DNA from: Lachnospiraceae bacterium
Lineage (GTDB): Bacteria; Bacillota; Clostridia; Lachnospirales; Lachnospiraceae
DNA: 64,000 bases
NCBI GenBank assembly: GCA_014804365.1
Contig: JAAUZX010000026.1
Location: forward strand, 41,730-105,729
Reading direction: 5' to 3'
Of this stretch, positions 408 to 30,794 are shown in pieces. The first letter of the stretch is position 1. Each line of letters starts with the position of its first letter. Both the position numbers and the translations under genes were made by a program. Under the pieces are notes generated by a model. The model saw only the letters and a list, made by a program, of their open reading frames with translations. It was not told the origin of the DNA and did no database searches.

Positions 408-460
408 TGAAATCCCTCCGTAATTTTATCTTCAATTTTCAGTTTTCTTATAGAACAATC

Positions 461-493
461 GTAACTGCGAAGAACAGGGTTCTGAACAGTTAC
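461..493. mobile_element. Short palindromic element with 8-bp target-site-like duplication
   Basis: GTAACTGCGAAGAACAGGGTTCTGAACAGTTAC flanked by GAACAATC at 453-460 and GAACAATC at 494-501. Confidence 0.7.
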
Positions 494-537
494 GAACAAT
501 CCATGTATTTTATCTCCAAATATGAATTTTATATAAT

Positions 538-580
538 AAAAAAGCTACCCTCCTTAAATTAAATTTAAGGACGATAGCTC
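538..580 (-). terminator. Rho-independent terminator of the T-box leader
   Basis: Near-perfect hairpin AGCTATCgTCCTTAAATT / AATTTAAGGAgGGTAGCT followed by a T run on the minus strand. Confidence 0.8.
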
Positions 581-815
581 CAAGCTTCGTGATACCACCT
601 TAGTTCATCTGTATTTCACAATACAGACCTCTGCAAGTACGGAATTACTTCGATACTCTGACGCTGTAATGGGCGCTCCCAGTGTAGCCTGTTGTCTATA
701 CAATCGGTACACAGCTCCAAGACCGGTTCAATTTTTATCCTCTGAAGTTTTCCACCAGCCAACTTCTCTCTGTGAGATTCAAAATATTTACTATCTCTTT
801 TCATCGCTTTTATTG
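538..815 (-). promoter_or_regulatory. T-box riboswitch leader
   Basis: Minus strand contains AACTAAGGTGGTATCACG (589-606), matching the T-box consensus, followed by terminator hairpin AGCTATCGTCCTTAAATT..AATTTAAGGAGGGTAGCTTTTTT (538-580); upstream AGAGAGAAGTTGGCTGGTGGAAAACTTC is stem-I-like. Confidence 0.8.
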
Positions 816-854: not shown

Positions 855-925
855 GCCCGAGCTCGCCTCACAAATCCAATATTTGCAATTTCTCTGCTTC
901 TTGTGTTAAAATATAATAATATTTT

Positions 926-1082
926 GTAATTATTCAGAAGGTGCTTCCGCGAGGTGTTTTTTGTGAGTGAAGCGTAAGCGGAAGTCACAGAAAACCCGAG
1001 GCAGACTTGTGCGAAATTATGCAGAATGCATAATTTCTGTGCATCTTCGTAACTGTGAAGAACAGGGTTCTGAACAGTTACT
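926..1082. mobile_element. Probable longer MITE-like member of the GTAAC...GTTAC element family
   Basis: Begins GTAATTATTCAG (926-937), ends CTGAACAGTTAC (to 1081), i.e. inverted termini; contains the 33-bp hairpin at 1049-1081 and a perfect hairpin GAAATTATGCA-gaa-TGCATAATTTC (1013-1037); imperfect flanking repeat AATATTTT / GATATTTT. Confidence 0.55.
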
Positions 1083-13737: not shown

Positions 13738-16700
13738 ATGAAAAAATCAAAAAGAAGATTACTAACGGGATTATTATGTATCGCATTGCTTGGAGCAGAC
13801 ATTATGTCGTCAGGGATTCAAGTGTTTGCGGCAAACCCTGCAATAGAGCTGGAGGCGGAGTATGAAGAAAGTAGTGAAGATTCAAATGAAAATGATATTG
13901 TAGATGATGATTCTACGGATAAATCTGACAGTAATGTCATAGAGGCAGAAGAAGAGGATGAATCCGAAGACGAGCAGGAAAAAGAAAATTCACAAGAACA
14001 GGACACAGATGAAGATAATGTGGATAGAATAAACGAGGATGAAAGCAAGGATTCGGCTGATGAAGCGGAAAGTGGAAGCACCGATGAAGACAAAATAGTG
14101 GAGAACATTGGGGCTGACGGAGTAGCTTCTGAAAGCGTGGTAGAGATACTTGCGCGGATTTCTTCGGAGGATGATCTTGAAAGAGGAGTTGTTGATGAGG
14201 ACTATGGGCATATTGCGTGGGTTATCGATGTTAATGGGAAACTCAAGGTTGAGGGAACTGGGGATTATTGTAATCCCGATCCTGCATCTTCCAGCCTTCC
14301 TCCGTGGTATTCACCTAGGTATTGTATTTTATCTGCGGAAATTAATGTGAAGGGTATGACAAATTCTTCTTATATGTTTACGCAATGTGAAAGATTGAAG
14401 AGCGTAGATTTACGTGGTTTGGATACGACAAATGTGACGGATATGTCAAGGATGTTTTTTAAGTGTGAGAGTCTCACAAACTTGGATTTAAGGAACTTTA
14501 ATACAAGAAATGTGATAAATATGTATAACATGTTTTTTGGATGCGATAGTCTTACGAGTATAAACGTAAGCAGTTTTAATATCGAAAATGTAGTAGATAT
14601 GGGAGGTATGTTTGAAGGGTGTGAGAGCCTGACAAGTTTGGACATAAGTAGTTTTAGCATAGCGAATGCAACAGATATTAATATGGGAAGGATGTTTGAG
14701 GGCTGCAGCAGCCTGACGACCTTAGATTTAAGCAGCCTTGATACGGCAAACGCAACAGATATGGGATATATGTTTGAGGGCTGCAGTAGTCTTACCAGAT
14801 TAGATGTAAGCGGCTTTGATACGGTAAATGTAAAAAATATGACAGGTATGTTTAGTAATTGTACTAATTTAGCCAGCTTGAATTTAAGTGACTTTAATAC
14901 AGTGAACGTAACAGATATGGGATATATGTTTGACGGGTGTAGCAGTCTGACCAACTTGGATTTAAGTAACTTTGATACGGCAAACGTAACAGATATGGGA
15001 TATATGTTTCACAATTGTAGCAGTCTGGTCGGCTTGGATATAAGTAGTTTTGATACAGCGAATGTAACAACTATGAGAGATATGTTTAGTTGGTGTGGGA
15101 ATTTAATTGGTTTGGATGTAAAAAACTTTGAAACAGTGAATGTAGAAAGTATGTTCTATATGTTCGCTGGGTGTGAGAATCTGACACACTTAGACGTAAG
15201 TAACTTTATAACCACCAATGTCAAAAATTTTGATAGTATGTTTGCTGGTTGTAAGAAGTTAACAAAACTTGATTTGAGAACTTTTGATATGCTTGATATC
15301 GATGCGGGTGGTTCATTTTATATGCTTGATGGGTGTTATGGGCTTAATGAAATATATACACCGATTATTGGATCAGATCGTAGAATATCTCTTCCAAAAG
15401 AAACGGATTCAGATGTTTGGTATATGCATGATGGAACAAAAATCGATTATATATCTGACCTTTCGGAAAGTGTTCACATCATGAAAAATGAAATTCCCGG
15501 GAAATATGGTATTACGTTTGATCCGCAGGGAGGAAAAATAAATTATAATGAACAGACCGGTCTATCGACTCTTATTTTAAGTACCGGAGCAGAGGATAAA
15601 ATAAAAAAATTGCCTGATGGAGTAAAGGACGATTATTTATTTGTTGGCTGGTACACAGCTGTGGAAGGGGGGACTCGCGTCACTGAGGATTATATTTTTA
15701 CTGAGAATACAACTCTTTTTGCGCGTTATGAGGAAAAGCCACTTACGGCAGAGCAAAGCGCAATAAAACCAAAGAGTGTTACATATAAGTATGCTTATGA
15801 GAAAATAGACGTTCTTAAGAAGGCTCATAGTATTGAATCTGATCATGAACCTTTTACTTTGGTATGCACATCGGTAGTTCAGACCAAGGTGCGTAATTAT
15901 ATTTTGTACTATAATGAAGAAGTAATCGCTGAAAGTGCCAATGGTGCATTTATAGATATTGATCCGTCAAAATATGATACCGGAGGTGTCTTTTATCTTG
16001 AGACCGTAGGTGCAGATAATGGAAAAACTGCAGAGCGTGTTAAAGTAAAGCTATTATTGCAAATAAAGAACAAAAATATTGCAGTTCCAAGCTCTATTAG
16101 TTTATTTGGGAGTGGTTTTTCTGTCACCTTGGATGAGGACGTGCCTATTGTAGGCGGTCAGAAGATTAGTCTGGCTTTCCCGGATATCCCTTTTAGTTGT
16201 GTGGTCGAAGATAATAAGATTAAATTGGGATTAAATTTAAAGGAGAAGACGTTATATAGTGCTGATTCGTATAATGGAGAGACGACATCAACACCGCCCA
16301 AATCTTTATCACAACAGGTGGAGGAGTGGAAAAAAGACTTAAGAAAAAGTCGTGATATCAAAAAAGATGTGAAGGGCTATCTCGAAAAAGACGATTTGGA
16401 TGCAGATATTCCCGGCATGGAAAAGAAATGCAAATTGACTGTATTTGGATATTTGGAAAGCGAATTTTATCGTTCTTATGCTACGGGTGCACACGAATTT
16501 AAGACTGTGTCCGGAGAAATTGTAGTTGCGATTTCCGGATCACGGACGACGCAGAAGCAGAGTGCAATACCTATTGGATTTTTAACGATTCCTGTTACAT
16601 TTAATTGTTCTTATACTGGAAATGGAACGCTGACCGGTAAGCTTAAGTGGGATTTTACCAGTGCCTCGTTTTTTCCATTAGACGCAGATGTTACCGGATC

Positions 16701-24426: not shown

Positions 24427-26310
24427 ATGAACAAAGAGAGAAAACCCTTTAATGTAAAACTGTTTTATAGGAGAACCTGTCTGATCATATATGATGTGAT
24501 CAGTGTGATTCTGGCGAGTTATCTGGCGATTGTGATGCGTTATGAATTCCGCGTGGACGCGATACCGGAGCATTTTCTGAGTCCGATTGAACATGTGATG
24601 CCGTTAAACATCGTGGTGACGCTGGCAATTTTTTACGTGTTCCGTCTGTACAGCAGTCTCTGGGCTTTCGCGGGTGAGTCAGAATTACAGAATATTGTGG
24701 TATCCTGCGTACTGTCTACTATTGTAAACAGTATATGCCTGCAATTTTTTAAGACTACGTCCAGTGCGGTGCCCAGAAGTTACTATTTCCTTTATCTGTT
24801 CCTGTTGATCACATGTATATTCAGCAGCCGTTTCTCATACCGATTCTTCCGGAGCCTGAAACATAAGCAGCAGAATAAGAAGAACAGGATTGCCGTTATG
24901 GTGATCGGAGCGGGGGAAGCAGCGAATCTGATAATTAAGGAGATCGTCAACAGCAACTTTTCCACTATGGTTATCAAATGTATTATTGATGATGACAAGG
25001 GAAAATGGGGAAGATATATTCAAGGTATCAAGGTCGTGGGAGGCCGTGACAAGATCGTGGAATGTGCCGATATCTATGAGGTGGACGAGATTATCGTGGC
25101 GATGCCGTCGGCCACCAGGGCAGAGATTAAAAGTATTCTGGAGATCTGTAAGGATACAAACTGTAAGCTGCGTTCCCTGCCGGGCATGTACCAGTTGGTG
25201 AACGGTGAAGTTAACGTCAGTAAACTGCGGGATGTAGAGGTGGAGGATCTGCTGGGCAGAGATCCGATCAGTGTAGATCTGGATTCCATTCTCGGCTATG
25301 TGCAGGGTAAATCGGTGCTGGTCACCGGAGGAGGCGGCTCCATCGGCAGTGAGCTGAGCCGGCAGATTGCGTCACACAGGCCAAAGAGGCTTATTATTGT
25401 AGATATTTATGAGAATACGGTGTATGATGTGCAGCAGGAATTGAGGGCGAAATATCCTGAGCTGGATCTGGTAGTGCTGATTGCATCCGTGCGGAATACA
25501 AACCGCATGAACTATATATTCTCGGAATATCGTCCTGATATTGTATATCATGCGGCGGCGCACAAGCATGTGCCGCTTATGGAGGACAGTCCTACCGAGG
25601 CGATTAAGAATAACGTGTTCGGAACTTTTAAGACCGCACAGGCAGCCGCTATGAGCGGTGTGCAGCGCTTCGTTATGATCTCCACCGATAAGGCGGTAAA
25701 TCCGACTAATATAATGGGAGCCAGCAAACGGATCTGCGAGATGATCATACAGACTTTTGACAAGCATTACGAGACGGAGTTTGTGGCGGTTCGGTTCGGC
25801 AATGTGCTAGGCAGTAACGGCAGCGTTATTCCTCTGTTTCGCAAACAGATTGCTGCGGGCGGACCGGTAACCGTGACCCATCCGGATATCATCCGTTATT
25901 TTATGACAATCCCGGAGGCGGTGTCGCTTGTCCTGCAGGCAGGCGCTTATGCTAAAGGCGGGGAGATCTTTGTGCTGGACATGGGAGAACCCGTGAAAAT
26001 ACTGGATCTGGCGCAGAATCTGATCAAATTGTCGGGCTATCGTGTTGGGGAGGATATCCAGATTGAATTTACGGGGCTACGACCGGGCGAGAAGCTGTAT
26101 GAAGAGCTGCTCATGGACGAGGAAGGCATGAAGGATACGGCGAATAAGATGATCCATATCGGAAAGCCGATTGAACTCAATGAACATGAATTTTTTGCGC
26201 AGCTAAAAGAGCTTAAAGATGAATGTCAGGTCGAAAATTCGGATATCAGACCGCTTATTAAGAAGATTGTTCCGACTTATCACAGTCAGGATGAGGAGAA
26301 CCAGAAATAG
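24427..26310 (+). CDS. Membrane-anchored UDP-GlcNAc 4,6-dehydratase (PglF/CapD/WbpM-like)
   Basis: N-terminal TMs, VLVTGGGGSIGSELSRQIASHRPKRLIIVDIYENTVYDVQQEL, HAAAHKHVPLMEDSPTEAIKNNVFGT. Confidence 0.95.
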   Translation: MNKERKPFNVKLFYRRTCLIIYDVISVILASYLAIVMRYEFRVDAIPEHFLSPIEHVMPLNIVVTLAIFYVFRLYSSLWAFAGESELQNIVVSCVLSTIVNSICLQFFKTTSSAVPRSYYFLYLFLLITCIFSSRFSYRFFRSLKHKQQNKKNRIAVMVIGAGEAANLIIKEIVNSNFSTMVIKCIIDDDKGKWGRYIQGIKVVGGRDKIVECADIYEVDEIIVAMPSATRAEIKSILEICKDTNCKLRSLPGMYQLVNGEVNVSKLRDVEVEDLLGRDPISVDLDSILGYVQGKSVLVTGGGGSIGSELSRQIASHRPKRLIIVDIYENTVYDVQQELRAKYPELDLVVLIASVRNTNRMNYIFSEYRPDIVYHAAAHKHVPLMEDSPTEAIKNNVFGTFKTAQAAAMSGVQRFVMISTDKAVNPTNIMGASKRICEMIIQTFDKHYETEFVAVRFGNVLGSNGSVIPLFRKQIAAGGPVTVTHPDIIRYFMTIPEAVSLVLQAGAYAKGGEIFVLDMGEPVKILDLAQNLIKLSGYRVGEDIQIEFTGLRPGEKLYEELLMDEEGMKDTANKMIHIGKPIELNEHEFFAQLKELKDECQVENSDIRPLIKKIVPTYHSQDEENQK

Positions 26311-26317
26311 AGAAATT

Positions 26318-26371
26318 GTAACTATTCAGCGCAGGTCGAAGCATTTACTGCTGAGACCGTAAGAATATGAT
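26318..26371. mobile_element. Candidate degenerate member of the GTAAC...GTTAC element family
   Basis: Starts GTAACTATTCAG (26318-26329); the 54-bp segment is flanked by direct repeat TAGAGAAATT (26308-26317 and 26372-26381). Confidence 0.4.
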
Positions 26372-26411
26372 TAGAGAAATTCTATAAATCCGGAAAGGTA
26401 AAGAGGCTGTT

Positions 26412-29568: not shown

Positions 29569-30657
29569 ATGGGCAGAATATTGGTTTTGACAAATTCTTC
29601 CGGCGGGTTGTATGATTTCCGAAATGAATTTATGCAGGCGATGTTAGCGGAGCATGAGGTCTATGTCAGTATGCCTGATGATGTGAAAGAGAAGGAGCTG
29701 GCGGCGGAGGGATGCCGGATCATCAAGACGTCGATCAACCGCAGGGGAATTAATCCACTGGAAGATTTGAAGTTGTACCGCGCTTACGGCAGACTGATGA
29801 GAGAACTTAAGCCTGATCTGGTGGTTACTTATACGATTAAGCCGAATATCTACGGCGGTTTTGCGGCGGCGCGGCGTAAGATTCTGTATATTGCCACGAT
29901 CACAGGTCTGGGCGGCGCTTTTGACAGGACGGGGATTCTCCTGAAGGTGATCGTTGCCATGTATCGAACGGGGCTGAGACGGGCCGCATGTGTCTTTTTT
30001 CAGAATGAAGAGAACAGAGGTATATTCCAGAGACTCGGTATCACGGCGAAGAAGACACGCATGGTCATGGGATCGGGCGTAAGTCTGGAAAGGCACCGGT
30101 ATGAGCCGTATCCTGACAGCGGGGAGACGCATTTTCTCTTTGTAGGCAGGGTCATGAAAGAACGTGGTATACTGGAATATATCGAGGCGGCGAAGGAGTT
30201 ACATAGTGATAATGTCTTCTTTGATATTATGGGATACTGCGACGAGGATTATCAGGACATGCTGGATGAGTTGGAGAAGGAAGGCATTTTGCGTCAGATC
30301 GGATTCCACACGGAAGTACATCCGTATCTGGCGGCGGCCAGTGCGATTGTGGTGGCATCCTTCCATGAGGGAATGTCCAATGCGCTGATCGAAGGCGCGG
30401 CCACGGGAAGGCCGGTGATCGCTTCCAATATCAGTGGCTGTCTTGAGGCGTTCGAGGACGGACGCACCGGATTCGGATTTACGCCCGGACATGCAGAGGA
30501 ACTGATTGGCGCCATGCGGAAATTTTTGGATTTGTCTACAGATGAGCGTGCTGAGATGGGACGCAGGGGCAGAGAGAAGATGGAGCGGGAATTTGACCGA
30601 AGGCTGGTGACAGGAGCCTATATGGATGAAGTAAGACTACTGCTGGGACAGAAGTAA
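29569..30657 (+). CDS. GT4 family glycosyltransferase (PglA-like)
   Basis: GRILVLTNSSGGLYDFRNEF...LFVGRVMKERGILEYIEAAKEL...SFHEGMSNALIEGAATGRPVIASNISGCLEAFEDG; the ORF opens at 29509 and ATG at 29569 has a gagg RBS. Confidence 0.92.
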   Translation: MGRILVLTNSSGGLYDFRNEFMQAMLAEHEVYVSMPDDVKEKELAAEGCRIIKTSINRRGINPLEDLKLYRAYGRLMRELKPDLVVTYTIKPNIYGGFAAARRKILYIATITGLGGAFDRTGILLKVIVAMYRTGLRRAACVFFQNEENRGIFQRLGITAKKTRMVMGSGVSLERHRYEPYPDSGETHFLFVGRVMKERGILEYIEAAKELHSDNVFFDIMGYCDEDYQDMLDELEKEGILRQIGFHTEVHPYLAAASAIVVASFHEGMSNALIEGAATGRPVIASNISGCLEAFEDGRTGFGFTPGHAEELIGAMRKFLDLSTDERAEMGRRGREKMEREFDRRLVTGAYMDEVRLLLGQK

Positions 30658-30664
30658 CGTGATC

Positions 30665-30691
30665 GTAACCGTGAAGGTACTGAACAGTTAC
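30665..30691. mobile_element. Short palindromic element with 8-bp target-site-like duplication
   Basis: GTAACCGTGAAGGTACTGAACAGTTAC flanked by ACGTGATC at 30657-30664 and ACGTGATC at 30692-30699. Confidence 0.7.
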
Positions 30692-30794
30692 ACGTGATCA
30701 TAATATTACAAGCGATACATCTTTATGTCTGTACTGCCTGAACAGAGGTCGGATAAAGCAGCGCAGAAGGGTATACGGAAAATGGAGGATAAAA

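What the first reader, a model, noticed from the sequence alone, without database searches (positions are those of the whole stretch)
453..501. 33-bp hairpin element bounded by a perfect 8-bp duplication
GTAACTGCGAAGAACAGGGTTCTGAACAGTTAC sits between two GAACAATC copies. Related termini recur at 1049-1081 and 30665-30691. A palindrome with a target-site-like duplication is the signature of a transposed element, yet 33 bp is very small for a MITE. It lies between a T-box terminator and the methyltransferase start, so it may also affect that mRNA.
Basis: seen in the sequence. Interest (0 to 1): 0.72.

Follow-up and report, generated by a model that had tools for sequence, protein, structure and literature searches.

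The report
Shrunken transposon remnant: 33-bp solo hairpin
The 33-letter hairpin is what is left of a small parasitic DNA element that jumped into this gut bacterium's genome, copied 8 letters of its landing site, and most likely then lost its middle between two matching stretches, so that many tiny palindromes scattered through these genomes are worn-down jumping-gene remnants.

Summary
In detail: 461-493 is a 33-bp hairpin between two GAACAATC copies. Two close relatives carry the same locus with one GAACAATC and no hairpin, so it is an insertion with an 8-bp target-site duplication (TSD). It belongs to a MITE family in Lachnospiraceae. Among 156 copies, 127 have a TSD of at least 6/8 bp (shuffles: mean 8, maximum 15). 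Tips (GTAACTGTTCAG) and TSD match the ISBst12 group of IS66 elements; the genome holds one decayed IS66 transposase with that right tip. The parent element is 156 bp; window 926-1081 is one. The 33-bp form is exactly the 156-bp consensus minus 123 bp, deleted between imperfect 14-bp direct repeats (left tip GTAACTGTTCAGAA, internal GTAACTGTGAAGAA). At nine sites (a tenth is probable) one genome has the 33-bp form where another has 55-79 bp, both flanks conserved, so many 33-bp copies are in-situ deletion remnants ("solo hairpins", by analogy with solo LTRs). The window copy's own longer ancestor was not seen, and independent transposition of 33-bp units is not excluded. There is no sign of selection on the stem. 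New MITE family with a clear shrinkage route; moderate interest.

The parts
453..460 (.). left copy of the 8-bp target-site duplication GAACAATC
   Evidence: single copy in G215 and G216
461..493 (+). 33-bp solo hairpin, the retained right module of an IS66/ISBst12-type MITE
494..501 (.). right copy of the target-site duplication GAACAATC
926..1081 (+). 156-bp full-length member of the same MITE family (left tip decayed to GTAATTATTCAG); 1049-1081 is its right module. A 55-bp form lies at the same site in G216; absent in G215 and G218
   Evidence: 97% identical to the 156-bp consensus over 149 bp
918..925 (.). left flank AATATTTT, 7/8 match to GATATTTT at 1083-1090 (one extra T after the element): worn TSD of the 156-bp copy
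30665..30691 (+). 27-bp solo hairpin of the related B-type family (right module GTAACYGTGAAGGTACTGAACAGTTAC)
30657..30664 (.). left TSD copy ACGTGATC of the 27-bp element; right copy at 30692-30699; G176 has one copy and no element
26318..26372 (+). truncated B-type copy (left tip GTAACTATTCAG), flanked by GAGAAATT on both sides
   Evidence: sequence reading; not followed further
564..813 (-). T-box leader of the downstream methyltransferase gene; context, not part of the element

Best explanation
The 33-bp hairpin is the contracted remnant of a non-autonomous transposon (MITE) moved by an IS66-family transposase of the ISBst12 group. Step 1 (shown): an element with GTAACTGTTCAG-type tips inserted between the T-box terminator and the methyltransferase start and duplicated GAACAATC. 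Step 2 (shown at nine other sites, inferred here): the interior was lost by deletion between the left tip GTAACTGTTCAGAA and the internal copy GTAACTGTGAAGAA, 123 bp apart in the 156-bp form and 22 bp apart in the 55-bp form. This leaves only the right 33 bp, still flush with both TSD copies. The likely cause is replication slippage or short-homology recombination, helped by the palindromic structure (inferred). The result is an immobile or poorly mobile solo hairpin, comparable to a solo LTR, that decays neutrally and has no demonstrated effect on the neighbouring mRNA.
For: Empty orthologous sites with one GAACAATC in G215 and G216. Family-wide TSDs: 127/156 copies against a null mean of 8 and maximum of 15, exact repeats clustered at 8 bp. 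Empty sites 7-8 bp shorter than the two-TSD query for 156-bp copies too. The 33-, 49-, 55- and 58-bp consensus forms each equal the 156-bp consensus with one deletion and 0 mismatches, bounded by direct repeats of 8, 4, 4 and 4 bp; chance of 4 or more is 0.03, of 8 or more 0.009. Same-site pairs with both flanks conserved: 33 vs 55/58/59/79 at nine sites, plus one probable; 156 vs 52-56 at five sites, including the window's own 926-1081 copy. IS66 link: decayed transposase in the genome ends GGGGGTTCTGAATAGTTAC; intact relative with both ends GTA[A/T]CTGTTCAGAACCCCC; ISBst12-type plasmid elements with GTAAC tips and perfect 8-bp TSDs; published ISDge4 tips GTGACTACTCAGCA and GTAACTGCTCAGCA with an 8-bp duplication (PMC12898284).
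Against: No longer form was found at the window's own insertion: the relatives are empty there. Several 33-bp copies sit at sites empty in relatives with perfect TSDs and near-consensus sequence, so direct transposition of 33-bp units is possible. No intact matching IS66 was found in this genome or its nearest relatives. The left end and TSD of the decayed IS66 are only suggestive, and the intact relative L089 lacks a recognisable TSD.
Confidence: 0.72

Rival explanations
1. The 33-bp hairpin is itself a transposing unit: the transposase uses the internal GTAACTGTGAAG as an alternative left end and moves the 33 bp directly, each time making its own 8-bp duplication.
For: 33 bp is the commonest size (50 of 127); several 33-bp copies are genome-specific with perfect TSDs, including the window copy. 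Eight 33-bp sites occupied in two or more genomes show no longer form.
Against: Nine sites show 33-bp and longer forms at one insertion. The deletion repeats predict the product exactly. Two ends separated by 3 bp are hard to pair on stiff DNA (inference). 33-bp variants are mostly shared with longer forms rather than forming a lineage of their own.
Confidence: 0.22
2. It is a REP-type palindrome moved by a RAYT (Y1 tyrosine transposase).
For: Size (20-40 bp), palindromic, extragenic, many copies: only 3 of 42 genome sites tested lie inside an ORF of 100 aa or more.
Against: No Y1 transposase in the genome. The 5' end is GTAA, not the GTAG or CGTC tag (PMC3733652). A clear 8-bp TSD and longer TIR-bounded forms, as expected of a DDE transposon.
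Confidence: 0.01
3. It is a selected regulatory hairpin of the methyltransferase leader, for example an mRNA stabiliser next to the T-box terminator.
For: Location in the 5' UTR; stable stem on the - strand.
Against: Absent from two relatives that keep the T-box and gene. Only one double compensatory change among 34 solo sites; stem pairing (93%) no higher than in 50-66 bp (94%) or 156-bp (98%) copies. Copies lie beside unrelated genes.
Confidence: 0.04
4. Chance palindrome with a chance 8-mer repeat.
For: None.
Against: 64 tips against 0 in the reversed control; empty sites.
Confidence: 0.005

Closest known systems
IS66 family, ISBst12 group (e.g. ISDge4 of Deinococcus geothermalis, PMC12898284)
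   Same: Tips of the type GTAACTGYTCAG and 8-bp target duplication; the decayed transposase in this genome ends in the same tip
   Different: The window element carries no gene and is 33 bp; the autonomous elements are about 1.5-1.8 kb
Bacterial MITEs (e.g. MITEAba12, PMC6382973, seen as title and abstract only; Correia elements and ERIC from general knowledge)
   Same: Gene-less, terminal inverted repeats, TSD, many dispersed copies, empty sites in relatives; internally deleted size variants are known in such families
   Different: The 27-33 bp end state and the nested tip copy that makes the collapse predictable
Small dispersed repeats of cyanobacteria (Elhai et al. 2008; known only by citation; paper not held)
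   Same: Very small (about 20-30 bp, from general knowledge) repeated elements described as mobile
   Different: Here the parent element, TSD length, transposase family and deletion route are identified; the cyanobacterial mechanism was not checked here
GTAG/CGTC REPs with RAYT transposases (PMC3733652)
   Same: Size, palindrome, extragenic location
   Different: No GTAG/CGTC tag, no RAYT, 8-bp TSD present
Solo LTRs
   Same: Recombination between direct repeats of a transposon leaves one terminal module inside the original TSD
   Different: Repeats are only 14 bp (12 identical) and the element is a DNA transposon; analogy, not membership

Membership tests
MITE | terminal inverted repeats | tested here: met
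   33-bp copy forms a stem of 8-10 plus 5 bp; 156-bp consensus has GTAACTGTTCAGAA at both ends
MITE | target-site duplication of fixed length | tested here: met
   8 bp; 127/156 copies, null mean 8
MITE | empty orthologous sites | tested here: met
MITE | no coding capacity, many dispersed copies | tested here: met
   64 exact tips in the genome; elements at most 183 bp
MITE | transposition of this unit demonstrated | not testable with these tools
   needs a transposition assay
IS66/ISBst12-derived element | same tips as an autonomous element of the family | tested here: met
   L055 right end, L089 both ends; ISDge4
IS66/ISBst12-derived element | 8-bp target duplication | tested here: met
   three plasmid IS66 elements of the single-gene type with 8/8 TSDs; IS66 elements ISPpa5a and ISPpa7 listed with 8 (PMC3281130)
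IS66/ISBst12-derived element | intact transposase of matching type in the same cell | tested here: not met
   only a decayed copy and a fragment; the genome is about 85% complete, so this lowers the claim of present activity, not of origin
REP/RAYT | GTAG or CGTC tag | tested here: not met
   5' end is GTAA (PMC3733652)
REP/RAYT | Y1 transposase present | tested here: not met
   no PF01797 match
cis-regulatory RNA hairpin | compensatory base changes or conserved position | tested here: not met
   one double change in 34 sites; absent in relatives

The most novel reading that the evidence does not exclude
The 33-bp (and 27-bp) hairpins are themselves substrates of an IS66-type transposase, moved through the internal copy of the tip. 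They would then be among the smallest DNA transposons known, with the two ends only a few base pairs apart.
Probability: 0.22. Interest if true: 0.75.

Novelty: new variant of a known kind. Interest (0 to 1): 0.45.

Why it matters
It shows, in wild gut Lachnospiraceae, a stepwise route from a 156-bp MITE to a 33-bp palindrome at fixed insertion sites. Tiny dispersed hairpins that look like REPs or regulatory stems can therefore be worn-down transposon insertions. The nested copy of the tip makes the collapse predictable, so the same signature can be searched for in other genomes. It also gives a test of how small an IS66 substrate can be, in a transposase family whose mechanism is little studied.

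Tried and rejected
Plasmid collection with the 141-bp locus: no match. Viral contigs with the exact 33-mer: none. RAYT/REP: no Y1 transposase. Regulatory RNA: no covariation, and Rfam finds only the T-box. TSD for the intact IS66 relative L089: none found. The other IS66 transposases found, in G150 and G235, have no such tips nearby. Literature: the tip sequence occurs only in 15 papers on unrelated subjects, and no report of a Lachnospiraceae MITE of this kind was found.

Full report
Observation. The hairpin at 461-493 and its flanking GAACAATC copies are as described. It folds well on both strands. The tip CTGAACAGTTAC has 64 exact copies in the 3.83-Mb genome and none in the reversed control. 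The exact 33-mer occurs in eight Lachnospiraceae metagenome-assembled genomes and in no other genome of the one-per-species bacterial and archaeal collection. Within the genus it is patchy (4 of 37 genomes).

Insertion and target-site duplication. In the close relatives G215 and G216 the same locus, with T-box terminator and methyltransferase start, has a single GAACAATC and no hairpin. This is the empty site. Over 156 copies of the right module from six genomes and other MAG contigs, 127 have a flank match of at least 6/8 at a tip-like left end, against a shuffled mean of 8 and maximum of 15. Exact abutting repeats are 8 bp long in 19 cases, 7 in one, and of no other length tested.

Family anatomy. 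Sizes cluster at 33 bp (50 copies), 55 (29), 58 (12) and 155-157 (19), with a B-type relative at 27, 132 and 183 bp. The 156-bp consensus carries GTAACTGTTCAGAA at both ends and an internal GTAACTGTGAAGAA 123 bp from the left end. The 33-, 49-, 55- and 58-bp consensus forms are each the 156-bp consensus with one deletion and no other difference, bounded by direct repeats GTAACTGT, CTGT, CTTC and GTGC. The window's 1049-1081 match is the right module of a 156-bp copy at 926-1081.

Shrinkage at fixed sites. With both flanks conserved, nine sites have 33 bp in one genome and a longer form in another: 58 bp (L022 vs L254/L280; L026 vs L249), 55 bp (L082 vs five copies; L036/L202 vs L047/L203; L285 vs L253; L075 and others vs L301; L186 vs L009/L184/L185), 59 bp (L245 vs L074) and 79 bp (L305 vs L275). 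L308 vs L270 is probable. Eight multiply occupied sites are 33 bp throughout. Five sites have 156 bp in one genome and 52-56 bp in another (L002/L083, L059/L014, L263/L019, L142/L256, and window 926-1081 vs 55 bp in G216). Growth from 33 bp back to the exact internal parent sequence is implausible except by conversion between copies, so the direction is long to short. A minority of solos carry TTCAG instead of TGAAG in the left arm (2 clear TC cases). This is the other product expected when the same deletion resolves to the right of the two mismatched bases; arm-to-arm correction is an alternative.

Transposase. The genome holds one decayed IS66 transposase (PF03050, 1.5e-40) ending GGGGGTTCTGAATAGTTAC. 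A relative in G014 has a 487-aa IS66 transposase (NF033517) between GTAACTGTTCAGAACCCCC and GTATCTGTTCAGAACCCCC. Single-gene IS66 elements on plasmids have GTAAC tips and perfect 8-bp TSDs. ISDge4, reported to transpose, is placed in the ISBst12 group and has tips GTGACTACTCAGCA and GTAACTGCTCAGCA with an 8-bp duplication (PMC12898284). No intact matching transposase was found in this genome or the nearest relatives, so the family may now be stranded there; the genomes are incomplete drafts.

Effect on the gene. The T-box leader (564-813, - strand) and its terminator precede the hairpin in the transcript. The terminator folds the same in the empty relative. The stem lies about 40 nt upstream of the ribosome-binding site. 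Stem pairs show one compensatory double change in 34 solo sites, and pairing is no better than in longer copies. A regulatory role is unsupported but not measured. Copies are mostly intergenic: 3 of 42 sites lie inside an ORF, against 328 of 470 random positions in the same loci.

Limits. All genomes are drafts, mostly metagenome assemblies, and the window's own is 85% complete with 7% contamination, so two forms within it (C38 and C76 copies of one site) may be strain mixture. Orthology rests on flanking sequence. The step from a longer form to 33 bp is shown at other sites, not at this one.

Noticed in passing
window 30657-30699: A 27-bp hairpin of a sister family with a perfect 8-bp duplication ACGTGATC, just after a gene end and upstream of the next ORF; empty in G176.
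   Followed up: yes
window 26310-26381: Truncated B-type copy: left tip GTAACTATTCAG with GAGAAATT on both sides; the right end is missing although the duplication remains.
   Followed up: partly
L047 about 16477-16566 (G000:C76): A different abundant repeat (CGGAGTCGCGCTTTCGCTCCGCAAAAAGCGTAGCA) beside a solo hairpin gave over 100 hits in G176, G215, G216 and G218; an unrelated family not characterised here.
   Followed up: no
L187 vs L027 (G218 and G000:C26:3696): At one site the hairpin is imperfect in G218 and a perfect palindrome in G000: either arm-to-arm correction or two independent deletion products.
   Followed up: partly
L053:15962 (G000:C89) vs L285: In G000 a deletion appears to run from a CTTC in the flank to the CTTC inside the element, removing the left TSD; the element thus also erodes its flank.
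   Followed up: no
G000 C38:625-679 and C76:491-523 (L036, L047): The same insertion in 55-bp and 33-bp form within one draft genome; strain mixture or a duplicated locus.
   Followed up: partly
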